From Dacryopinax spathularia (Eukaryota; Basidiomycota; Dacrymycetes; Dacrymycetales; Dacrymycetaceae): a stretch of DNA of 64,000 nucleotides. Positions 16,777 through 32,077 of this stretch are shown piece after piece. Location of the stretch: contig JBBPFI010000004.1 in NCBI GenBank assembly GCA_037974965.1, positions 620,001 through 684,000 of the forward strand, read 5' to 3'. Made by a program: the position numbers and the translations under genes. The first letter of the stretch is position 1. Each line of letters begins with the position of its first letter. A model generated the notes under the pieces. That model was given only the letters and a program-made list of their open reading frames with translations. It ran no database searches and was not told the origin of the DNA.

Positions 16777-18407
<1,631 letters not shown>

Positions 18408-20146: not shown

Positions 20147-20450
20147 TTTCGTGATTGTTGATGATGAAGAAACTGTGCAAGAAGTCCGGATCCCTGGGCA
20201 ACGTAGTTGACCAGGTTTCTTTACCGGGGGGGGACCTCCACTTTTCCCTGCAAACGAGGTTGTTGCCTTTTATGGATCGTTAGTCAGCGGTGCTGCGTAA
20301 ACGAGCGGACACAGTACGGACGCAGATTACAGAATAGAGAACAGTGGTTCGCAGTCTACACATTCCAGTGAGACGTCTTGCTCACAAGTGTGCACAGTTC
20401 TACATGCGGTGGCTGGCAATGATGTCTTTCCCTTGCCAGCCGTCTTCGTT
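20147..20450. other. P5C reductase promoter and candidate left end of the Helitron
   Basis: No gene is seen. The left Helitron terminus must lie between the P5C reductase start (20146) and the first palindrome copy (20451). A canonical TC terminus cannot be picked with confidence. A run of eight Gs is at about 20,227-20,234. A one-mismatch relative of the palindrome (CTGTGCAAG) occurs at about 20,173. Confidence 0.4.
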
Positions 20451-20572
20451 CTTGCGCAAGACTTTCACTTCTTTCCCATGCGTTCTTCAGTCGTTCAGTT
20501 TGGTGTCTCGCGTCTGGTCTTGCGCAGGTGAATATAATCAGGTGCGTACAGGCGGTCTCTGTAACACAACAA

Positions 20573-23500
20573 ATGGACGCTCACCTTGTAGTAGGTGGGG
20601 GACACATCCGGATCGGCTCAACTTTGGTACCCGACTCCGTCTTGAATACTGGTTACGAGTTCCAAGCCATCAACCCGCGCGATGTTTTGCCGTCACCGGA
20701 CTTACTTTTGCTTCATGCCGACCTGGTACACTTGATGCCATTGTATGGTCATTTCACCGTCGACGCCCTGCGCAAGGTCTCCCTCGCTGTTGGTTTGACC
20801 CATCCTTTGCCTTCTCGGCGTGCCGATCTGTGGGCGAACCTTGCCGTCCACGCCCGTGCATCTGCAGGAACGGAGTTTTCCTGGCTTTTTCGCAGGCGAC
20901 CTGATCGACGGTCCCATGGCTTCAACGCTCGCCCGGCCTTCTCTGTGTCTTCCCCATCGAAGCGACCATCGGCTTCGAGCGTCCCGCGAGCCAAACGAAC
21001 AAGACCGTTACCTGCGCAGGAAGCATCACCTGATCCAATCACCCTGCAGTACCCTCCCAGTTTCGAAGATGCTGAATTTCCTCCCCCGATCAACCACAAC
21101 CTGATTCAAGAGATCATCCATGAATATACCGAATCGGTTCAGGACGAGTTCTTGCGCATGGATCCGTGCGGCTGTTGTGCAGAGGCCTTCCCTCGCACGT
21201 TGTTGCGGCAAGTGGATGTCGAAGATGTGGATTTTCGGATACTGCGCAACAAGTTCATTCCTTATGACCTACATCCTCTTTCATACGACTTCGACCTCTA
21301 CCATCAAGCTTTTCTCGACGCAAACGCCCTTTCACATCCATTTGACTTTACTGGGCACATTGACCTATGCTCTACGTGCTCTAAAGGTCTTGCGCAGGGA
21401 GACATGCCTCTTCTGGCCCTTGCTAATGGGTTCTACTACGCCCATGAACGATTGCCGCCTGCAGTGGAGCACGCTTTTCGGAATGCAACTTTCGTTGATC
21501 GCCGATTGGTTGCGCGATGTTCCGCCAGCAAGATTTGCTTTCGTTATTACGATAATCCTGAAAGTCGTCTATATCGACGAGGTTATTATGGAATGCAACG
21601 CTATTCAAGAGGGAACGTGCTCATTCTTGCGCAAGACACTGCCATGCTCAACAACGTGTTGCCGCCTCCTCCGGATGACGTCAAGCAGTGTTTCGTAGCC
21701 GTCTTCGCTGGTGCCGAGCCACCTACTCCGGATATGCTTCGTCGAGTTGGACCTGTGAAGGCGAATGCGCTAATTGTCCGCACCATCATCGACTTTCTTT
21801 TGCAGCACAATAAGGCCTACACTTGTACGACCATCGATTTCCCATCTCCAGCATCCTTTTCGCACGACAATTTTCAGCAGTTATTCCCTCTTGCGCAAGA
21901 CTCGTCCCCTCTTCTATTTCCCCATGTTCATGTGGGCCACTTTCCATCCGAGGCAGCTCAGTCTGCTGTCGAGTCAGATGTGGCCGGCAGGAACATGTTG
22001 GACGATGCTGGTGGGGTGGTGGATGACTTCTTCCTCGAAGCATCCGGTTTCACGGCAACAAACCCAAGTGCTGCGTCATATCAAGCAATGAAAGCTGATG
22101 CTCTTGCGCATGTACTGGATCGAAGGGGCTCGTTTTTGGTATCAAGAGCTGGCAGTCGTCCCATACACGACATTAAAAACGAGTTTACCCTTACCTGGAT
22201 GTTTCCACACTTGGATCCCTTCGGTTTAGGCGGGTTCGATGATCCTCGACGGACCCATAAGGTTCCCATGCGAACTCAGTTGACGCATCTGTTACGACTG
22301 GCCGACCGTCGCTTTCAACAAGATTCTACGTTCGCCTTCGTGTTTCACAGTATACTCCAAAAACGGCAATCTCTACGTCAGGTTCGTTTTCGAATTCCGG
22401 AAGGAAGGCACCAGGCTATCGTAGAAAGGTTACAGTCATTGGACCCCGACACATTTTCTCGCCTCGCAAATCGCTTGCAGAAGGACAACTGGGCGAAGGC
22501 AAAGTCTGAAGAAGAGGAGCTCGCACTTCGGGTCTTGCGCAAGGTGCAGATGCTCCGCCGGGATGTCCCTGGAAGCGATGCATACAAACGCATGTGCCGC
22601 AATCAAATGCGTTCCACCATGTATTTCGACGGATCAGTCGCCTTGTTTGGCACAATCACTTTCAGCGACGTTGACGGTTTCCTCTGTCAATACGCCATCA
22701 ATGGATATGAGAACGGGGAAGTCCTGCGCAAGGGATCGACTAAAGACTCTCGATTTGCACGCGCAATGAAGGTCGCGCACAACCCTGCCATCGCTGCCAG
22801 AGTCTTCCATGAGACCATGGTCCGATTTCGGGATATAATTCTTCGTGTTAACAAGGGGCCTGGACTGTTTGGGGAGTGCAAAGGCTGGTATGGAATGGTG
22901 GAGGCACAGGGGAGGGGCACGCTGCACTGTCACATGCTCATTTGGCTTGCCGGTAACCCAAGTCCAGACGACTTGCGCAAGAGATTGGCTTCAGAAGCAG
23001 ACTTCCAGGCCCGCATGTTCGAATGGCTTGAGCATATCATTAAGACTGAGCTACCTGGTCAAACCGAAGTACTGGTTGAACCGGATGGCCCTCTCCCTAT
23101 GCCCCGCTTGCGCAAGGACGAGATCGACCCTCGCACAGAGGCAGGTCCTGATCTTCGGAAGTTCGGTGCAGACTGGCGTCAACCATTTGATGAGCACGTC
23201 AAGAGCCTTGTCGAGCAGAACAATTGGCATGAACATCGAGAAACGTGCTGGATACACTTGCGCAAGAATGAAGAACGCAAAGATAGTAATTGTCGCATGC
23301 GGATTGACGGTAGCACACGAGCGAAGACCGAGCTCGACGCGGAGACTGGATCCATCCTCCTACGCCGCCTTCACCCACGAATCAACGAATACAACGATGT
23401 TATGATGTTCTTGTTGAAAGGCAACATGGATCTTCAGTACATCGGATCAGGCGAAGCCTCCAAGGCAGCAATGTACTACATTACGGATTATATCACCAAG

Positions 23501-26473
23501 CCGTCTTTAAAGCTTCACGCTGGTTTGACAGCAATGCTCTATGCCCTGCGCAAGAACCAAGAAAAATACGCCGACTCAGATGCATCGGACGCAGTGAAGG
23601 CTAAAAGCCTTGTCATGAAAATGCTCAACAGTGTTTCGGCTCGCCAGGAACAATCCCATCAACAGGTCATGAGCTTTTATGTCGGCGGTGGGGATCGGTA
23701 TACATCATACACCTATGCACCTCTGTTTCTATCTCCTGGCCTTGCAAGAAAGGCGTCAACGTACGATCAGCCTGCTCAACTGCCTGCGCAAGATCTTACT
23801 GTCGGTGATGACGAGTTTGATGAAGTGGTGTCAGAGCAGGAGCAAGTTATGGGCAATGGTTTCGACTTCGCTTCTGTATCTCTTGATACCCAGGAAGGTT
23901 CTTTGACAAGTGGAAAGCAGAGCATCGACTACGTGTTCCGTCCTGCGCAAGACCCATTTAATGATCTGTGCCTGTACGATTTCGTTATGCTGGCGGAGAA
24001 GGAGAAAAGGAGTCGGAAACCGGTGGACAGCGACATGGATGAAGACGAACCAAGGCATCGTGTACGCTCAACACTTATGCGTGGAGAGTTTGAGGTCGGT
24101 CATCCACATCGCGACAAGTATCGCATGAAGCTACGGTCACGGCCTGCCGTACCTAACATCATTGGAGCCTCTATACCACCTCCTCCTGCGCAAGGAGTGC
24201 AAGGTGGTAGAGACGAGGAATGGTATGAGACCATGTTGACCTTGTTCAAGCCGTGGAGATCTATACACGATTTATGTCCCCCGCAATCGACGTGGTACGA
24301 TGCTTTCCACGCTTCGCCCTTTCAGTCTCGGCACCAGACTATAATGCGGAATATGACTGTACTTTATCAGTCAAAGGAGGCGCGGGATTCTGACCTTCGA
24401 GACAAGTTCCGTCGGAGGCGCTTGGCTACCCTGCTACCACAAGCCACTGCGGCTGAAGAAATCGAACAACTCGAGGAATGGCTTGCGCAAGAAGACGACC
24501 CTGGTACTGCCCACGGGGACGCACAAGAGGAAGAGCCTTTTCTTATCTCGCCTGATGCAGGGAGCCATTTCCTTGTTCAAGGCGATGTCCGTCCTGCTGT
24601 CTATCCCATACAAGCCGCTTTTCCTGTCCCTACCAACTCTGCATTTGACCTGCACAACATGTCTCCGCAAGAAGTTTGTGAAGTAGGCGACCAGGACCAT
24701 CCCCAGCTGCGTTTGCTTGCGCAGGAGCTTGCACAATGGAAGAGAGAGGGTCGCATCTCTCGTCTCAATCCTGGTGTACCTACCTCGACTCATCAGCCTT
24801 CCACCTCCATAACCACCGTACACGGCAACCTGCGTGAAGAGTCTCCGGCACTTGCGCAGGCCCTTCCAGCTCCTACCATGCTCAACAGACGCGAAATTGA
24901 GGATGCTCTTGCGCAAGTCATCTCAAGTCAAAACCTCGGCCAAAATATAGAGCAGACTCGTGCTCTTCGGGTGGTTGCCAACCATCTCTCGGATACCAGC
25001 AACCGCCAGCTCTTCCTATATATCGGGGGTGGTGCAGGTACTGGTAAAAGCCATGTGATTCGAAGCATCGAGGCTTTGTTCACACACCTGGGAATAAGAG
25101 CATCGTTACATCTGAGTGCACCTACTGGGGCTGCTGCTGTCGTCATCGGCGGTTACACCATTCACTCCCTGACTCTCTTGCCAACTTCTCGTGGTCAGCG
25201 CATCAATTTGGATCAGCTCGATGCCAACTGGCGCGGGATAAAATGGCTCGTGATCGATGAGATATCGATGGTCTCGGCACAGTTCTTATATGAAGTTTCC
25301 CTGCGCATGACGCTTGGCAAAGGCGTTGACGACAGCTTCCCATTCGGAGGTGTGAATATCATCTACACCGGCGACTTTGGCCAGCTAAATCCGCTCGCCG
25401 CATCTCCCTTATACTCTCACTCTCTGCTTGAGCATGTGTCCCCACGGACTGCAGGTCATGCGCAGGGCCAAGAAGCTATGACCGGCGCTCTGTATTGGCG
25501 ACAGGTGAATGAAGTCGTGATTTTGAAGCAAAACATTCGGCAAGCGAAAGACCTGCGATGGGCACATCTCCTCAATCGGATTCGACATGGACGAACATGG
25601 TCAGGGCGCAAACCACATACTCCTGCGCAAGGCAGTGGGCTGCACAACTTCGATGAACCAGACGTGGATGTGTTGAGGTCTCGACTCATGCACAAGCTCG
25701 ATGCTGCTTCCCTCACTTTATTTTCCGATGCACCCGTCATTGTATGCACGAAAAATATTCGTGATGCAATCAACTTGCATTTTGCTCGTCGCCATGCAGA
25801 CGTCTTGTGCAAGGACTGCCATCTCTACTTCGCCTCGGACTGGATTGGGAGAACACGGCTTTCGGGGGAGCTCCAAGATCATCTATGGAGCTTGCCTTGC
25901 AACAGAACTAATGACGCGCTCGCATTCATGCCTCTGTTCCACGGCATGAAGATCATGATTACCGAAAACCTGGCCTTGTCGAAAAGTCTTGTAAATGGCG
26001 CGACTGGCACGGTGGCTGGAGTCAGATATCGGTCCGACTCTGATGGTCGCCGGTATCCTGTGGCTGTTATGGTTCACGTGCCCGGTTGTGACTATGCGCA
26101 AACAGGTCTTCCACACAATACCGTTTGCATTCAGCCCCTGCGCAAGACATTTCGCTACACAACTAAAGATTTTCAGGGTCGGTCTCAGCAACACACTGTC
26201 TCTCGGGAATACCTCCCTATTCTACCGGCATACTCTTACACAGACTACAAGAGTCAAGGCAGGTCTCTCGAGCACGCCATCGTGGACCTCAAGGGTTGCC
26301 CTACCCCACAGAGTGCTTATGTCATGCTATCGCGGGTCAAATCTCTGGATGGATTGGCCATTCTACGTGATTTTGAGGATGGCTTGCTATACCGGGGCCC
26401 TCCATCGGAGTTGCGACACGAGTTTGACAGATTGGAGGGGCTTGCGCAGGACACGATGGAGCGGTTTGGTTAG
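20573..26473 (+). CDS. Helitron Rep/helicase (RepHel)
   Basis: Single 1966-codon frame starting at the first ATG (MDAHLVVGGG). The same frame is open further upstream, to 20528, after a possible splice acceptor made by a palindrome copy. The N-terminal region has Cys-rich segments (CGCCAEAFPRTLLRQ, LCSTCSKGL, LALANGFYY) like DUF6570-type fungal Helitron proteins. The Helitron-like replication-initiator region carries the HUH motif GRGTLHCHMLIW (near residue 790) and the tyrosine motif AMYYITDYITKP (near residue 965). The C-terminal third is a Pif1-family SF1 helicase: Walker A GGAGTGKSHVIRS (near residue 1487), Walker B WLVIDEISMV, YTGDFGQLNPL, and the late motifs SYTDYKSQGRSLEHAIVDL and AYVMLSRVKSLDGLAILR. 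It nicks and unwinds DNA for rolling-circle transposition. About 22 palindrome copies lie within it. Confidence 0.96.
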   Translation: MDAHLVVGGGHIRIGSTLVPDSVLNTGYEFQAINPRDVLPSPDLLLLHADLVHLMPLYGHFTVDALRKVSLAVGLTHPLPSRRADLWANLAVHARASAGTEFSWLFRRRPDRRSHGFNARPAFSVSSPSKRPSASSVPRAKRTRPLPAQEASPDPITLQYPPSFEDAEFPPPINHNLIQEIIHEYTESVQDEFLRMDPCGCCAEAFPRTLLRQVDVEDVDFRILRNKFIPYDLHPLSYDFDLYHQAFLDANALSHPFDFTGHIDLCSTCSKGLAQGDMPLLALANGFYYAHERLPPAVEHAFRNATFVDRRLVARCSASKICFRYYDNPESRLYRRGYYGMQRYSRGNVLILAQDTAMLNNVLPPPPDDVKQCFVAVFAGAEPPTPDMLRRVGPVKANALIVRTIIDFLLQHNKAYTCTTIDFPSPASFSHDNFQQLFPLAQDSSPLLFPHVHVGHFPSEAAQSAVESDVAGRNMLDDAGGVVDDFFLEASGFTATNPSAASYQAMKADALAHVLDRRGSFLVSRAGSRPIHDIKNEFTLTWMFPHLDPFGLGGFDDPRRTHKVPMRTQLTHLLRLADRRFQQDSTFAFVFHSILQKRQSLRQVRFRIPEGRHQAIVERLQSLDPDTFSRLANRLQKDNWAKAKSEEEELALRVLRKVQMLRRDVPGSDAYKRMCRNQMRSTMYFDGSVALFGTITFSDVDGFLCQYAINGYENGEVLRKGSTKDSRFARAMKVAHNPAIAARVFHETMVRFRDIILRVNKGPGLFGECKGWYGMVEAQGRGTLHCHMLIWLAGNPSPDDLRKRLASEADFQARMFEWLEHIIKTELPGQTEVLVEPDGPLPMPRLRKDEIDPRTEAGPDLRKFGADWRQPFDEHVKSLVEQNNWHEHRETCWIHLRKNEERKDSNCRMRIDGSTRAKTELDAETGSILLRRLHPRINEYNDVMMFLLKGNMDLQYIGSGEASKAAMYYITDYITKPSLKLHAGLTAMLYALRKNQEKYADSDASDAVKAKSLVMKMLNSVSARQEQSHQQVMSFYVGGGDRYTSYTYAPLFLSPGLARKASTYDQPAQLPAQDLTVGDDEFDEVVSEQEQVMGNGFDFASVSLDTQEGSLTSGKQSIDYVFRPAQDPFNDLCLYDFVMLAEKEKRSRKPVDSDMDEDEPRHRVRSTLMRGEFEVGHPHRDKYRMKLRSRPAVPNIIGASIPPPPAQGVQGGRDEEWYETMLTLFKPWRSIHDLCPPQSTWYDAFHASPFQSRHQTIMRNMTVLYQSKEARDSDLRDKFRRRRLATLLPQATAAEEIEQLEEWLAQEDDPGTAHGDAQEEEPFLISPDAGSHFLVQGDVRPAVYPIQAAFPVPTNSAFDLHNMSPQEVCEVGDQDHPQLRLLAQELAQWKREGRISRLNPGVPTSTHQPSTSITTVHGNLREESPALAQALPAPTMLNRREIEDALAQVISSQNLGQNIEQTRALRVVANHLSDTSNRQLFLYIGGGAGTGKSHVIRSIEALFTHLGIRASLHLSAPTGAAAVVIGGYTIHSLTLLPTSRGQRINLDQLDANWRGIKWLVIDEISMVSAQFLYEVSLRMTLGKGVDDSFPFGGVNIIYTGDFGQLNPLAASPLYSHSLLEHVSPRTAGHAQGQEAMTGALYWRQVNEVVILKQNIRQAKDLRWAHLLNRIRHGRTWSGRKPHTPAQGSGLHNFDEPDVDVLRSRLMHKLDAASLTLFSDAPVIVCTKNIRDAINLHFARRHADVLCKDCHLYFASDWIGRTRLSGELQDHLWSLPCNRTNDALAFMPLFHGMKIMITENLALSKSLVNGATGTVAGVRYRSDSDGRRYPVAVMVHVPGCDYAQTGLPHNTVCIQPLRKTFRYTTKDFQGRSQQHTVSREYLPILPAYSYTDYKSQGRSLEHAIVDLKGCPTPQSAYVMLSRVKSLDGLAILRDFEDGLLYRGPPSELRHEFDRLEGLAQDTMERFG

Positions 26474-26582
26474 GTGATTCAATGGGCTTCCCGCCACCTT
26501 CCTCTGCTGCTTGTTCCAGCCTTCCTGCGCAAGAATGGATATAAACCTGCACTTGTACTATTTCTTCGCATCACTCTCATCA

Positions 26583-27620
26583 TGGCAACAAAACGAAAAG
26601 CAGCTCAAATTCAACCAAACGACGAAACAGCCTTGCGCAGGACCCGGTATGTCTTTTCTTATATACTTCTTCATCGTCTTATTTTGTGCTTTAGTGCGAA
26701 ACTGGACCGTGGGGATGAGGTCGTTCCTGATCTCAGTGATCCTGAAGATAACATTCCGCTCTCCGAACTCGTTCCAGGTCATCCTGATCAACTCCGACTT
26801 TCCAAAGCGGCCTCAGCCATGGTCCCTGAAGGTGACGCGGATCCTCCTCTTGAAGGCTACGAACCGAAGCTCCTTAAGCGCTTGGAGGGCATGCGCAAGT
26901 ATGTTGATCGAGGGCGTGGAGTGTATTACGCAACCTCTTTTCCTCAAGACTTGCAATATGGGCATGACCAAGCCATCGATTACAGCAACTTTGTTGTCCG
27001 GTCCGATAACACCCCAGTACTGGTATGGCTCCTGGGCCATATTGTCGCCATGAAATTCCAAAACGACAATGGAACATGGGCAGATCAAGTATGGGTCAGC
27101 GTGCTCCCACTGTCCAAATCGGATGTCAGGGCAGCTACGCGCATCACGAACTACTATTCCCGCCCAAGGCAATGTCAGTGCTCCCCCTGTCAGCCTTGCG
27201 CAAGCCTCGTTGACATCCGCCAATAGCAGGGGCAGACCTCAACCCTTTTGGCAGCGTCATCGCCAACCGCTTCCAGAAGAAATATGGCTCAGATGCACCT
27301 GTATGTTTCCTGCGCACGACGTTATCCCATTTCTCACATCTCGTTCGCCCTTCCAGCCCAAAGCCTTCCATGCAGTTTACGACGCCTCGCTCGGCATGAA
27401 ACCTAAATCTGACTTGCCGGCAAAGCCTGTGCAAGAACTCAACAAAGGCGATCTCGTCCTCATGGAAATGCGAGTTAAGAAACGGTTTGACCCTAAGGAT
27501 TCAGACATCCCGAAGCCTAAGCGGCCTCATACTGTTAGTTTCCATCTCCACTCCATTTACTTCATTCATCCAGGTGACTTGCGCAAGAACGACGACGATG
27601 GTGTCATGTACACTTTCTGA
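26583..27620 (+). CDS. Helitron accessory protein A, unknown function
   Basis: Begins MATKRKAAQIQPNDETA, 110 bp after the RepHel stop. Exons 26583-26646, 26695-27173, 27227-27300 and 27357-27533 splice in frame with canonical borders, followed by a short last exon. The protein is about 230 residues, with an acidic N-terminal part (VVPDLSDPEDNIPLSELVPGHP), then a beta-rich region (GVYYATSFPQDLQYG, TPVLVWLLGHIVAMKF) and KAFHAVYDASLGMKP. I do not recognise a family. The last junction is ambiguous. A CAG acceptor at 27571-27573 gives a longer tail running to 27810. An AAG acceptor inside a palindrome copy (27585-27587) gives a short tail ending DGVMYTF. Presence in the element suggests a role in transposition, regulation or evasion of silencing. 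Confidence 0.5.
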
Positions 27621-27856
27621 TTTCCTCCCGCGTTTCATGTTAATAATACTTTGTTTCACACCACTCATGCAAGCCCCTTACCAGCCCCCTTCATATCAGA
27701 CACTTATAAAGCAGCACGCCCTGCGCAAGTTTGTCTTCAACCCTTACACATGCCCACACCTGCACATAGCATGTAAGACGCTTTTGTGGGATAACAGTAC
27801 GATATTCTGATACTAGCAGTTTTAGGGTGCGTCCACTCGGTTGGTTCCCCTGTCCC

Positions 27857-28084
27857 ATGGTCTCCTCACAAGCCAACCCGGACGATCCTGCGCAAGACAA
27901 TGAGGAACTCGTAGAACTGCTCACCACGATCCTGGCGCTTCGATTGCTAAATGACGATTTGCACGAGGAAATGATAGAACTGGAGGCCAGGCTTCGAGCA
28001 GCGGAAATTGAAATTGATGGGCAACGAAGATGTATAGCTGCCCTGCGTGTAGAGATTTCTTCCTTGCGCAAGGCCCCGGTGTAG
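27857..28084 (+). CDS. Helitron accessory protein B, short coiled coil (tentative)
   Basis: A 75-codon frame, MVSSQANPDDPAQDNEELVE to SSLRKAPV, with heptad-like leucines (LLTTILALRLLNDDLHEEM, LEARLRAAEIEI). It may be a separate small protein or the last exon of a longer transcript, because a possible acceptor (TTTTAG) lies just upstream at about 27,821-27,825. Palindrome copies encode PAQD near its start and LRKA at its end. No family is recognised. Confidence 0.35.
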   Translation: MVSSQANPDDPAQDNEELVELLTTILALRLLNDDLHEEMIELEARLRAAEIEIDGQRRCIAALRVEISSLRKAPV

Positions 28085-28125
28085 ACCGTATTACTCTCCA
28101 TCTGGCCTCTTGCCGGATTCAATAC

Positions 28126-29012
28126 ATGCGCATGTACACACCCTTCCGCCAGGGACATGTGATTTCCCCGGCAATCTCCGCACTCTTTTTGCATCCGCAA
28201 ATCCATGCGCAAGACCCCGATGGCTCCTTATCGGCTTACCGCCTTTCGCCTAGCCGCTCGCCTCACCCTCATACACACTCCCCTTGCCCGATGTAAGTCC
28301 ATCCAGCCATCTTTGTTTCATATAACCTCTCATGATCTTGCTCATCCTGCGCAGGTCTCAACGACCAAATTATCACGAGCCTCGCCGTTACGGTGCCGAA
28401 GACGGCCCCATGTTCCCCACAGCACCTCCGCCGAGGCCATTACCTTCCCAAGCGACGCAAGCAACTCCTGCGCAAGCCATTCCTGCGCAGGCTGTCGCCG
28501 TTGACTCAGGATCTGTGAGACCATCAAGTCCAGGTGACTCAGACGACGGCAGGGAGTCACCAACGACAGGTCAGATGCTCGCACTCCGTACCGTTCAGGT
28601 CGACGACCTGCAAGCCTCCCTAGCTGCCACCCGGTCTGATTTCAACGAGCTTCTTTGGGAAGCACACGATGTGGCTCGCGAGCGGGATAATGCCAAGGCG
28701 CAGGCTGAGCTTCTTGCGCAGGAGTTGGCGAACGCTCGACGGGATAATCCTGATCAGGAGCCAGCCGACTACCTTGCGCAAGAATTGCAAACTGCCCGCC
28801 GGCGAATTCGTAGATTGGAAGCCATGGTGGAAGACCGAAATCGCACGATATTACAACTTGAACCGCCCGAACGTCTTGCGCAAGAACTACAATTTGCTCG
28901 CCGTCGAATCCAAGACCTGGAGAACGTTGTCGAACAGCGTAATAAGACGATCCGAGACTGGGAGGCTCGTTACGCCAAGCTCCTGGAGGGCAAAGGGAGG
29001 AGACGAGAGTAG
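28126..29012 (+). CDS. Helitron accessory protein C, coiled-coil protein with LAQEL repeats
   Basis: Two exons (28126-28292 and 28355-29012) join in frame. The acceptor of the second exon is a palindrome copy (CCTGCGCAG). The N-terminal half is Pro/Ser-rich with QATPAQAIPAQAV. The C-terminal half is a long coiled coil (DLQASLAATRSDFNELLWEA onward) containing three related blocks of about 35-50 residues, each with LAQEL followed by an Arg-rich helix (ELANARRDN, ELQTARRRIRRLE, ELQFARRRIQDLE), and a basic end, GKGRRRE. In each block LAQEL is encoded by a palindrome copy. Basic coiled-coil proteins can bind DNA as oligomers, so this is a candidate for a factor that reads the palindromes; that is inference only. 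Confidence 0.5.
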
Positions 29013-29285
29013 TGTTATAATAGGTAGCCTTGTACTGTTTCCAATGCCTCAGACTACATGATTTCCTGCGCAAGACATTATCGTGCCTCATACTACTTGT
29101 TGCGCTTGCAGACAGACAAAACGAGATGCAGGGACAATTCGTACATTCATTTCCGACGCGCAAACAACATTACAAAGTGATCCTACAACAGCTTTCTTGC
29201 GCAGGAACAGGAGTATCCCTCCTACGTTAGGTACGCTCGAAGTACGTTACAACCCAGTTGGGCCTTCCCAAACCCTGCTAACATG

Positions 29286-31713
29286 TCAGTAAAATGATTT
29301 CAGAAGGGATTCTTGCGCAAGACGAACCCGATCTACGCTGTCCGCGGTGGCCTTGATATACATACGGTACTCGTGATCGATGACCCTATCGAGGGTCTGC
29401 ATGTACTGATTGTGGGGCTCGAACTGAATTAATTTAATTCAGTAAGGTCCTGCGCAAGAAAACAGCGTACTTACCTCCTGCGCACCTGCCCAATCGGCCA
29501 TCTGAGCCGCGCTCTGCTGCAGGAGATTGGTTGTCGCGGTGTTGAAAGAAAAGATTTGGAATTTGCCGGTAGCGTCTTGAATATCCGCAACGAAACGATA
29601 TCTAAAAAACCGTCAACACATGTTTCTTGCGCAAGTCCTGCGCAGGACTTACTTATAACCAGGGGCGACATAGTTGCGCTTGCACGCATCGCACTTGTAG
29701 TCGCCGGTATCTGTCACAGACAGCTCGTTCCACTTCTTATTGCATTCCTCGTACGGGCACCCTAAATACGTTATGTTCGTCCACCGACGGGGGAGGATCT
29801 TGGCGACCACAATGAACGTCTTTGCGTGATCCATGCCCAACTTACGCGCTAGGGCATCCTTGATCGTATACGTTTCATTCGGCATGGCCTGGATGACAAC
29901 GGGGAACCCTTCTGCGCTGAAACTTCCGGTAAGAGTACGCCAGAGGTTATTGTCTTGCGCATGAGCGCGCCACCTGCGCAGGAAGTTAGTATTTACTTAG
30001 CAATATGCCAACGAACTTGCCAGTCCATCACCCGTTGATGCGCCGCATTGTTGTCGCCAAACAACACCTTTGTCCGTTTCGCCGAAGTCTTCAAGCACGG
30101 ACCATCCCGAAAGTCAACAAGAGCGCTTTTGATGGTAGCACATCGGCCTTCATTCTTCAGGAAGGCTTCCTGCCAGCCATCGAAACAACAAAGGCGGATA
30201 ACAACGCGGGAGTCGTCGACGAGCCACACATCCAATCGATCGGATGAGGGCGCACGTTTATGTCCCTGCGCAAGAATCAGGTCTTGCGCAAGACTTCATC
30301 ACCTTGGCTTACCAGTGTGGCCCGTGCCCCCTCCATTACACCACTCTTCACCCCCTTCCCACCAATACGAGCCACCACAGCGACTACATCTGATATGGAG
30401 TCAATTCACGCCCTTGAGTCTTGCGCAAGAAACCCTTACCAACAGCCTCATTTTGGCGGAAGTACTGGATCGCGTTCAGTGTCGTCCAGTGAAGGAACAT
30501 CGGAGGAAAGCGCCCATCATCATCCACCTCAGTCCAAGCGGTTTGAGCTCGAACGACAACCCGATACTTGTGGGGCACACGTGTATACTGTGCAGGCGAA
30601 GGTTCTATTCCTAGACCCGTAAAGCGATAGACCTGCGCAAGAAGTTAACAACGCATACATCTGACTTGCGCAGGACGTACAGAGTTGCGTACAAGCTTCT
30701 TCATATCCCCAACGAACTGGTCATACCCGATAATCTCGATTTCCCCCTGCCTTCACGTGAACATCTTGCGCAAGAAGAGTGGGACCTACTTACTGTGGCA
30801 TCCAGTAAAATAGCAGTCATAAAGTAGGTGTATCTCCTCGAGTCGTTGTCCCACATCCTCGTCGCTTCTGCCACCTCGTAAACACGTGCGAAGAGGATGA
30901 ACCTTTTCTTTTGTCAGCACATCGTCTCTCCTGCGCAAGAAATACGTACGGTTCAACTCCTGGCCGAATCTGAGCGATGTCGGGCTTACGCGTGCCATCC
31001 GCGTAAGTCACAATAACAGAACGAGGTGGAACAACACGACGATCGTAATCGGGCGGGGCATCCGTACAATCCACCGTGCTACTCACTTTCCTCCATCGCA
31101 CTTGGTTGTTGTTGGACCGATTAGGGAGGGGAGCATGTTCTTGCGCAGGAAAGCCGGCCTGCAAATGTGTGACGGATCCGATCTCGCCACGTCCTGGTGC
31201 CGGCTCGAGAGACATCAGCAGCTTCTTTGGCTGCTCCTGCAGGGGCCAGTTCCCGAGCTTGTTCCACCTCACAATCATGATTGTACTGCATATTTCATTA
31301 GTATATGCTCCTTGCGCAAGACGAACGACTCACTAGCTTTGCCCCCCCAACGCCTGCCAAAACTCCGTGACCTCCAACACATCTAACCGTTGGATTTGAC
31401 CACCCTCGATCGCAGCAACGAGACGAGGATGTGCGAGCGCAGTGAGGTTATACGTGCCATCTTGCAGATCGATTCTGTCTGCTCTTCAGCCTCTTCAAAG
31501 GACTTGCGCAAGAAGACAGACTCACAGGTAAAGGCGAGGTGTATGCGGTGTGCCGTCGTTCTTGCGCAAGGGACCCGTATAGCGCAAGACTTGAAGGATC
31601 GCCCGATACCGAATAGGCGAACCGAAGACCATGGTCTGCAAAGCCCCCTTCGTTAATACCGGGCGAGGGGGCCTTGCTTGCTGATTGGCGGATTGAATAG
31701 GCGGCTGAGCCAT
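29286..31713 (-). CDS. RPA70-like single-strand DNA-binding protein carried by the Helitron
   Basis: Opposite strand to RepHel, with many introns. Start MAQPPIQSANQQ at 31713 leads into an RPA N-terminal OB fold (LTKGALQTMVFG, RYRAILQVLRY, then after an intron LQDGTYNLTALAHPRLV). DBD-A follows across an intron at about 30.93 kb (FARVYEVAEATRMWDND, LLDATGEIEIIGYDQF). DBD-B starts VYRFTGLGIEPSPAQYT and continues LDVWLVDDSRVVIRL. The C-terminal DBD-C has the zinc ribbon CPYEECNKKW ... YKCDACKRNY and FVADIQDATGKFQIF. The stop is TGA at 29288-29286. This domain order is that of the large RPA subunit. Plant Helitrons are known to carry RPA-like genes. Palindrome copies in its exons and introns show that it belongs to the element and is not the host gene. 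It may coat the displaced strand during rolling-circle transfer. Confidence 0.82.
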
Positions 31714-32077
31714 AGTTGGAGTGAAGCTTGCCGATTACGAGACAGTGGAGGACGGAGGAATCGGTGACGAGGAGGATGTGATCGACAACGGCAGGGGACT
31801 TGCGCAGGACCTGACATAGCATTGCTCCCGAATTTTGCCTCCGCCGCGCACGAGGCACGTTGCCCAGGCGTGCGCGGAGCGGTTTGACTATTGGGTAAGT
31901 GCGCCAATGAAGGGGTCCAAAGTAATGTTCGGCCGAGAGCGGCTGGAATGCGCGAATCACGTTTCGTTTCCTTTGATCCCGGTGCTGCCAAGCGCGCTCC
32001 TCCACGTTGGACTTCTCCGTTGTCTCTCTCCGTCCCGCGCTGCTGCACGCATTCCGAAGATCGGTTGGGAAAGAAGG
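31714..32077. other. RPA promoter, Helitron right end and Alg13 promoter
   Basis: Contains the last palindrome copy (31799), the candidate terminal hairpin, and then the 5' flank of ALG13. Minus-strand frames that continue here have no counterpart in RPA proteins and look non-coding. Confidence 0.4.
31844..31877. repeat. Strong inverted repeat, candidate Helitron 3' hairpin
   Basis: Perfect 9-bp arms CCGCGCACG (31844-31852) and CGTGCGCGG (31869-31877) surround a 16-nt loop. Three further pairs are possible across a 2-nt bulge. It lies about 36 bp beyond the last palindrome copy. Helitrons carry a GC-rich hairpin near their 3' end, normally some 10 nt before CTRR. Here the sequence about 10 nt after the stem is CTAT, so the match is imperfect. 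Confidence 0.45.

What the first reader, a model, noticed from the sequence alone, without database searches (positions are those of the whole stretch)
20451..31808. An element-wide array of about 60 palindromic decamers marks the whole Helitron
C[T/C]TGCGCA[A/G]G occurs about once per 175 bp across 11.4 kb and stops at or near the element's borders. Only about two matches to TGCGCA[A/G]G were seen in the other 52 kb. Copies lie in coding, intronic and spacer DNA and on both sides of the strand switch, so they are not a protein repeat or a promoter motif. Both perfect palindromes (CTTGCGCAAG and CCTGCGCAGG) and the mixed forms occur, with an almost invariant TGCGCA core. This resembles a self-recognition tag: sites for an element-encoded anti-silencing or transposition protein (as with VANDAL elements and their VANC proteins), or a uniform methylation or replication signal. 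I know of no such array in Helitrons.
Basis: partly seen in the sequence, partly recalled or inferred. Interest (0 to 1): 0.93.

Follow-up and report, generated by a model that had tools for sequence, protein, structure and literature searches.

The report
Helitron studded with one palindromic tag
A jumping gene, probably fungal, carries the same ten-letter palindrome about every 170 letters along its whole length, apparently even at the cost of changing its own proteins, which looks like a DNA-level tag that lets a protein recognise and coat the entire element.

Summary
The 11.4 kb element (20451-31808) holds 55 strict CYTGCGCARG sites and 67 TGCGCA cores; the other 52.6 kb hold 0 and 22.

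Signs of selection on DNA:
- Cores are spaced more evenly than chance (CV 0.58 against 0.98; 0 of 20,000 simulations).
- All 10 modelled introns of an RPA70-like gene hold a core: 13 in 454 bp, against 5 in 1,974 bp of exon.
- The RepHel ORF carries 21 strict sites; synonymous shuffling gives 1.1.
- RepHel is enriched in the encoded tripeptides: LRK 9 against 0.55 expected, LAQ 9 against 0.78.
- None of 44 coding cores uses the cysteine frame.
- Core-mismatched sites are near background.

Best reading: binding sites for a dimeric protein covering the whole element, most likely a self-tag against silencing, as VANC is for VANDALs. Binding is well supported by the site's form; anti-silencing is inferred. 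No host genome is held and no relative was found, so family-wide occurrence is untested. Borders were not located.

The parts
20451..31808 (.). The array: 67 TGCGCA cores, 55 of them strict CYTGCGCARG palindromes. Strict decamer starts: 20451 20519 20767 21011 21389 21626 21890 22534 22723 22972 23107 23257 23545 23783 23942 24185 24482 24716 24851 24908 25622 26137 26441 26524 26632 27195 27578 27720 27887 28063 28346 28467 28482 28713 28773 28875 29065 29196 29312 29449 29626 29637 29973 30265 30283 30420 30632 30665 30765 30930 31140 31311 31503 31561 31799
20573..26476 (+). RepHel gene, one uninterrupted ORF of 1966 aa: DUF6570, Helitron_like_N (HUH-type motif LHCHM at aa 784, Y motif YYITDYITK at aa 968; motif roles recalled), PIF1-type helicase. 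27 cores, 21 strict
   Evidence: helicase part also matched to PIF1 and Helraiser chains
26582..27620 (+). Accessory gene G2, modelled with 4 exons (26582-26646, 26695-27173, 27227-27300, 27357-27620), 293 aa, no family match. 3 cores in exons, 2 in introns
   Evidence: splice model by eye, frame checked; no Pfam match at E 1; three solved-structure matches, all E 0.07 or worse
27857..28084 (+). Accessory ORF G3, 75 aa, coiled-coil-like by eye; 2 cores
28126..29012 (+). Accessory gene G4, modelled with 2 exons (28126-28292, 28355-29012), 274 aa, long helices. 7 cores in exons; one in the intron, whose GCGCAG is the modelled splice acceptor
   Evidence: only sub-cut-off Pfam matches; AlphaFold model of exon 2 from a single sequence is helical, mean pLDDT 77.8
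29286..31713 (-). RPA70-like gene, modelled with 11 exons, 657 aa. Each of its 10 modelled introns holds 1-2 cores (13 in 454 bp); 5 cores in 1974 bp of exon
   Evidence: Rep_fac-A_C 2e-15, with Rep-A_N and two OB families below cut-off but in order; RPA70 structures, best 4gnx_C 2.5e-21
20150..20450 (.). Probable left border zone, between the start of a P5C-reductase-like host gene (minus strand) and the first site
   Evidence: read by eye, gene name recalled; exact end not found
31811..32077 (.). Probable right border zone, between the last site and the start of an ALG13-like host gene (plus strand)
   Evidence: read by eye, gene name recalled; exact end not found

Best explanation
The element carries an element-wide array of binding sites for a symmetric (dimeric) sequence-specific DNA-binding protein. 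The protein acts locally, over a few hundred bp, so the whole element has to be covered: sites crowd into introns where a gene has them and go into codons where it does not. The most likely use is a self-tag. Occupancy of the array marks the element's chromatin as its own and keeps it out of host silencing (or opens it), so RepHel, the RPA70-like protein and the accessory proteins can be expressed and the element copied. The binder is most likely one of the element's own unassigned proteins (G2, or the coiled-coil G3/G4). Shown here: the array, its DNA-level placement, the amino-acid bias it brings, even coverage, and the lack of core-mismatched sites above background. Inferred: a binding protein (about 0.8). 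Inferred further: the anti-silencing role and the element-encoded binder.
For: Symmetric information decaying outward from TGCGCA to about 4 bp on each side. Half-sites vary independently (Fisher P 0.55). Of spacings 0-7 between CYTG and CARG, only 2 is enriched: 60 against 1.94 scaled from the flanks. Strict sites 55 against 0. Of 10 one-mismatch sites, 8 change only position 2 or 9; the 2 core-mismatched ones compare with about 2 scaled from the flanks. Core spacing CV 0.58 against 0.98 for uniform placement and no gap above 471 bp (P 0.0016); RepHel, accessory and RPA blocks are each more even than random (0 of 5,000; P 0.007; P 0.035). RPA introns hold 13 of the gene's 18 cores in 454 of 2428 bp, P 1e-6. 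RepHel: 21 strict sites against 1.1 (max 5 in 2,000) under synonymous shuffling and 0.05 under codon-order shuffling; LRK, LAQ, PAQ enriched 11-16 fold. 0 of 44 coding cores in the Cys-Ala frame (P 3e-4 against the phase background of RepHel codons). Precedent: VANC21 binds a short motif whose high density is unique to VANDAL21 (passages of PMC5735166). Some fungal Helitrons are reported to carry TET/JBP genes thought to counter silencing (passages of PMC12730594).
Against: No binding, methylation or expression data. No DNA-binding family reaches its Pfam cut-off in G2, G3 or G4; the one hint, E2F_TDP in G4 (E 0.005), covers 22 residues inside the helical part. The G2 fold was unusable (pLDDT 35). 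VANC motifs are mainly noncoding and arise by tandem repeats; neither holds here. VANC effects spread from noncoding sites over the whole element (passages of PMC10398659), so full coverage is not strictly needed for anti-silencing. The preference for noncoding DNA rests largely on the RPA introns: G4 exons (1 core per 118 bp) are as dense as spacers (1 per 125 bp). CpG o/e is undepleted in the element (0.98) but also in the flanks (0.94-0.95), so it says little about silencing. Both core-mismatched sites in the element (25804, 27426) are the CpG-to-TpG form, which methylation would give; 2 inside and 2 outside is too few to judge. Only one copy was seen.
Confidence: 0.4

Rival explanations
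1. Maintenance or replication tag: the sites organise the element's circular or single-stranded transposition intermediate (coating, bridging by coiled-coil proteins, priming of the second strand), working with the element's own RPA70-like protein.
For: The element encodes RepHel, an RPA70-like protein and a protein predicted as long helices. Even coverage of coding and noncoding DNA suits coating or second-strand priming.
Against: Known partition and origin sites are clustered rather than spread over 11 kb (recalled). RPA binds with little sequence preference (recalled). A 10-bp palindrome would make at most a very short hairpin in single strands (reasoning, not folded here).
Confidence: 0.17
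2. Sites for a host protein: the element gathered binding sites for an abundant host factor that opens chromatin or activates transcription. The core TTGCGCAA is the recalled consensus of C/EBP-type bZIP proteins.
For: Core matches a known class of dimer site (recalled, no call). Element-encoded proteins show no DNA-binding domain at Pfam cut-offs.
Against: Strict sites are absent from the 52.6 kb of flanking host DNA, odd for a common host activator, though this is a small sample of the genome. Activation alone would favour promoters, not introns and the middle of a 5.9-kb ORF.
Confidence: 0.17
3. By-product of a sequence-biased repair or mutation process, as proposed for the bacterial palindrome HIP1, with no function of the sites.
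For: HIP1 is an 8-10 bp palindrome found in very large numbers, for which a methylation-dependent mismatch-repair origin has been proposed (passages of PMC4390886). The motif here has a central CpG.
Against: The bias would have to act on this element and not on the adjacent 52.6 kb (0 strict sites). Even spacing and avoidance of the Cys frame are not expected of a blind process. No methyltransferase family was matched among the modelled proteins.
Confidence: 0.1
4. Fragment-recognition tag, like bacterial DNA uptake sequences: a site every few hundred bp ensures that any piece of the element is recognised for recombination, gene conversion or transfer between copies, which drives the motif.
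For: Accumulation one by one in permissive places resembles uptake sequences, reported to build up gradually by point mutation in noncoding and unconstrained coding sequence (passages of PMC1939737).
Against: No fungal uptake or conversion system of this kind is known to me. Uptake sequences drop sharply at the first mismatch (82-92 fold) but still keep an excess of mismatched forms; here core-mismatched forms are near background.
Confidence: 0.08
5. Coincidence, a protein repeat, or tandem duplication of a repeat unit.
For: LAQEL recurs three times in the coiled-coil gene G4.
Against: 0 of 100 shuffles; two reading frames plus introns and spacers; flanks no more alike than random places, 25.4% against 25.1%.
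Confidence: 0.01

Closest known systems
VANDAL transposons and VANC anti-silencing proteins (Arabidopsis; PMC5735166, PMC10398659, passages seen)
   Same: A short motif dense in one transposon family and rare in other TEs; autonomous element with accessory proteins; motif density suggested to matter for self-recognition.
   Different: VANC motifs are 8-9 bp, not palindromic, mainly noncoding, in one orientation and grown by tandem repeats. Here the motif is a dimer-type palindrome, two thirds coding, evenly spaced, with unrelated flanks, in a Helitron-type element.
HIP1, the highly iterated palindrome of cyanobacteria (PMC4390886, passages seen)
   Same: Short palindrome present in very large numbers; that HIP1 lies in coding and noncoding DNA alike is recalled.
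   Different: HIP1 marks whole bacterial genomes and goes with methyltransferases; here the palindrome marks one 11-kb element and is absent from the flanks seen.
DNA uptake sequences of Neisseriaceae and Pasteurellaceae (PMC1939737, passages seen)
   Same: Dispersed tag in coding and noncoding DNA, built up by point mutation where sequence is unconstrained.
   Different: Not palindromic, genome-wide, bacterial, with an excess of mismatched forms, recognised at uptake.
HELPO Helitrons of Pleurotus ostreatus and TET/JBP-bearing fungal Helitrons (PMC4289320, PMC12730594, passages seen)
   Same: Fungal Helitrons with RepHel; some carry extra genes, including likely anti-silencing enzymes.
   Different: The passages seen describe no motif array. 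In HELPO no RPA domain was found in the RepHel ORF; this element has a separate RPA70-like gene. No TET/JBP family was matched among the modelled proteins.

Membership tests
Helitron (rolling-circle transposon) | RepHel protein with HUH nuclease and PIF1-type helicase domains | tested here: met
   Helitron_like_N 3e-26, DUF6570 1e-20, PIF1 2.7e-16; LHCHM and YYITDYITK motifs present
Helitron (rolling-circle transposon) | 5' TC and 3' hairpin plus CTRR ends, inserted between A and T (Helitron1) | tested here: inconclusive
   None of 3 CTRR on the right had an upstream hairpin; 5 of 8 on the reversed left had weak ones; Helitron2-type ends not tested systematically
Helitron (rolling-circle transposon) | Multiple copies in the host genome | not testable with these tools
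   No genome is held for the window
VANDAL/VANC-type anti-silencing system | Motif array specific to one element | tested here: inconclusive
   55 strict sites inside, 0 in the other 52.6 kb of the window; genome-wide not testable
VANDAL/VANC-type anti-silencing system | Array mainly in noncoding tandem repeats, one orientation | tested here: not met
   44 of 67 cores coding, palindromic, flanks unrelated
VANDAL/VANC-type anti-silencing system | Encodes a VANC-family protein | tested here: inconclusive
   No VANC-named family among the Pfam matches, but whether Pfam holds a VANC model was not checked and no direct comparison was made
VANDAL/VANC-type anti-silencing system | Protein binds motif and removes methylation | not testable with these tools
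   Needs wet-lab data
HIP-type highly iterated palindrome | Palindrome spread over the whole host genome | tested here: not met
   Strict site absent from the 52.6 kb of flanking DNA
HIP-type highly iterated palindrome | Cognate DNA methyltransferase | tested here: inconclusive
   No methyltransferase family matched among the modelled element proteins; the host could not be searched

The most novel reading that the evidence does not exclude
A transposon has turned its whole body, exons included, into a self-recognition array: an element-encoded dimeric protein binds a site about every nucleosome length and keeps the element active, and this DNA code has reshaped the amino-acid sequence of its own transposase at about twenty places (inferred from the tripeptide excess, not from relatives).
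Probability: 0.35. Interest if true: 0.95.

Novelty: new variant of a known kind. Interest (0 to 1): 0.85.

Why it matters
If true, it shows a DNA-level code imposed across a whole mobile element strongly enough to alter its transposase, and gives a simple handle on how a Helitron is recognised as self. It makes an open question testable: whether fungal Helitrons escape silencing by sequence-specific tagging as plant VANDALs do. The motif is exact enough to find family members by counting, to fish out the binding protein with one oligonucleotide, and to be scrambled synonymously.

Tried and rejected
Chance or composition: rejected. Protein repeat: rejected, two frames plus introns and spacers. 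Tandem-repeat growth: rejected, flanks unrelated. RNA-level signal: unlikely, since sites are in introns, exons and spacers. Helical or nucleosome phasing: no clear periodicity. CpG decay form of the motif, CYTGTGCARG: 2 inside, 2 outside; denser inside, too few to judge either way. Sites thinner in conserved RepHel domains: looked at by hand positions, about 4 of 21 strict sites in a third of the protein; not significant, not claimed.

Relatives: RepHel gave none in viral contigs or genome contigs; G2 and RPA gave none in viral contigs. Plasmid (12 of 12 records) and phage (20 of 227 records listed) matches are confined to the helicase part, residues 1438-1934. A three-site pattern gave 0 viral and 15 prokaryotic stretches; in these the repeated sites share their flanks, so they are repeats (first four sites of each shown). 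A two-site pattern gave 63 viral stretches. Of all 78 loci the densest has 2.23 strict sites per kb, in a 3.6-kb locus with a tandem repeat, against 55 in 11.4 kb here.

Structure: G2 exon 2 unusable; G4 exon 2 helical. No fold search was run. Literature: searches (open-licence PMC only; titles and starts of abstracts of the listed papers seen; listed 20 of 31, 10 of 10, 25 of 165, 10 of 11, 3 of 3, 8 of 258, 10 of 38, 8 of 12, 2 of 2) showed none that describes such an array in a Helitron.

Corrections on the way: a first RPA splice model had stops and a first G2 model was out of frame at the end; both were replaced. RPA intron 8 has two possible models (23 or 80 nt), both in frame; the 23-nt one is unusually short. 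A uniform-thirds null for codon phase gives P 2e-8; against codon background it is 3e-4, and that is the figure I use. The spacing null is uniform placement and does not model coding constraint.

Full report
OBSERVATION. TGCGCARG occurs 124 times on the two strands of the window against 6.13 in shuffles (largest 13); 119 matches lie in 20451-31808, 5 outside. There are 67 TGCGCA cores inside and 22 outside, and 55 strict CYTGCGCARG inside against 0 in the other 52.6 kb. TGCGCA is the commonest hexamer of the element. Outward, the next cores are at 17327 and 33090.

SETTING. The element holds one uninterrupted 1966-aa RepHel ORF with DUF6570, Helitron_like_N and PIF1 domains and HUH- and tyrosine-type motifs (roles recalled), three accessory genes (G2, G3, G4) and, on the minus strand, an RPA70-like gene modelled with 11 exons. 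The latter matches Rep_fac-A_C at 2e-15, with N-terminal and OB families below cut-off but in order, and RPA70 structures, best 4gnx_C at 2.5e-21. The element lies between a P5C-reductase-like and an ALG13-like gene read by eye (names recalled). A DUF1776 gene, a family described as fungal, and short introns point to a fungus; the species is not known. Canonical Helitron ends were not found, so the borders are zones, 20150-20450 and 31811-32077.

THE SITE. Information is maximal in TGCGCA, high at the outer C and G, and falls symmetrically to about 4 bp beyond the core on each side, with little further out. The second position is mostly a pyrimidine in each half, and the halves vary independently (Fisher P 0.55). 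Of half-site spacings 0-7, only the two-base one is enriched: 60 against 1.94 expected. This is what sites of a dimeric DNA-binding protein look like. Of 10 one-mismatch sites in the element, 8 differ only at the degenerate positions 2 and 9. Two have a core mismatch, about the number scaled from the flanks; both (25804, 27426) are the CpG-to-TpG form. So sites are nearly always exact: strong constraint, or recent spread.

DNA-LEVEL PLACEMENT. Noncoding DNA has 23 cores in 1547 bp, coding 44 in 9813 bp (P 1.4e-5). All 10 modelled introns of the RPA gene hold one or two cores, 13 in 454 bp, against 5 in 1974 bp of its exons (P 1e-6; 14 against 4 with the other model of intron 8). The preference is driven by these introns; G4 exons (1 per 118 bp) are as dense as the spacers (1 per 125 bp). 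By the splice models, two RPA introns (acceptors at 30633 and 30266) and the G4 intron use the motif's own GCGCAG as splice acceptor; so does the shorter model of intron 8. In the intronless RepHel, sites are in codons: 27 cores, 21 strict, against 1.1 strict (max 5 in 2,000) when codons are shuffled among synonymous positions. The amino acids are biased too: LRK 9 against 0.55 expected, LAQ 9 against 0.78, PAQ 6 against 0.48, and 21 of these 24 tripeptides are spelled by the motif. Coding cores use two frames, 27 in the LAQ frame and 17 in the LRK frame, none in the Cys-Ala frame (P 3e-4 against the phase background of RepHel codons). I infer that the protein limits where sites can go, but pays for them; no relative was available to show the changes directly.

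COVERAGE. Core spacing has mean 172 bp and CV 0.58, against 0.98 for uniform placement (0 of 20,000 simulations as even); strict sites give CV 0.69 (P 0.002). The largest core gap is 471 bp (P 0.0016). The largest strict gap, 714 bp, is not unusual (P 0.11). RepHel, accessory and RPA blocks are each more even than random (0 of 5,000; P 0.007; P 0.035). No sharp periodicity is seen in pair distances, so the mean near a nucleosome repeat is only suggestive. Flanks of different sites are no more alike than random places (25.4% against 25.1%), so sites most likely arose one by one, not by tandem duplication.

MECHANISM. Even coverage of the whole body, apparently at a cost to the proteins, argues for a factor that acts locally and is needed everywhere. 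Transposase end recognition, promoter activation, partition or an RNA signal would not need that. The best fit is occupancy by a dimeric protein as a self-tag, most likely to keep host silencing out, by analogy with VANC21, whose target motif is dense only in its own element (passages of PMC5735166). Some fungal Helitrons are reported to carry TET/JBP dioxygenases thought to counter methylation (passages of PMC12730594). Which protein binds is unknown: G2, G3 and G4 match no DNA-binding family at Pfam cut-offs, with one short sub-cut-off E2F_TDP match in G4 (E 0.005); G4 exon 2 is predicted as long helices; the G2 model was unusable. A replication/maintenance tag working with the RPA-like protein, sites for a host factor, and a HIP1-like repair by-product (passages of PMC4390886) remain possible.

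LIMITS. One copy was examined. No host genome is held, and no relative was found in the collections searched. The 78 stretches fetched by two- or three-site patterns hold no comparable array. Splice models were made by eye and checked for frame only. Absence from print rests on the nine literature searches listed in Tried and rejected, over listings of open-licence PMC papers; of the papers named, only passages were seen.

VERDICT. The array is real, confined to the element within the window, and best explained by DNA-level selection or drive. It works like a self-tag; one tested defining feature of the VANC kind (noncoding tandem repeats) is not met, and the others could not be settled. I file it as a new variant of a known kind, with about a one-in-three chance that the bolder reading is right.

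Noticed in passing
29286-31713 (minus): The element carries its own RPA70-like gene, modelled with 11 exons, separate from RepHel. The Pleurotus Helitron paper reports no RPA domain in its RepHel ORFs (passage).
   Followed up: partly
30633, 30266, 28354: In three modelled introns the motif's GCGCAG doubles as the splice acceptor.
   Followed up: partly
29974-29996: One RPA intron is either 23 nt, unusually short, with TACTAAC inside, or 80 nt; both keep the frame. Alignment of AHAQ to the same letters in a solved RPA70 favours the short form.
   Followed up: partly
28713-28884: The coiled-coil protein G4 has three LAQEL stretches, each spelled by the motif, so the DNA tag is built into its helices.
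   Followed up: no
26582-27620: G2 is an orphan multi-exon accessory protein with a basic N-terminus and no family match; a candidate binder of the palindrome.
   Followed up: partly
31844-31877: A 9-bp G+C-rich inverted repeat just right of the last site, seen by eye and in the fold (region not more stable than shuffles), possibly a terminal hairpin; no CTRR follows closely.
   Followed up: partly
25804-25813 and 27426-27435: Both core-mismatched sites in the element are the CpG-to-TpG form CYTGTGCARG and sit inside wider gaps of the array; possible decayed sites and a possible trace of methylation, too few to judge.
   Followed up: partly
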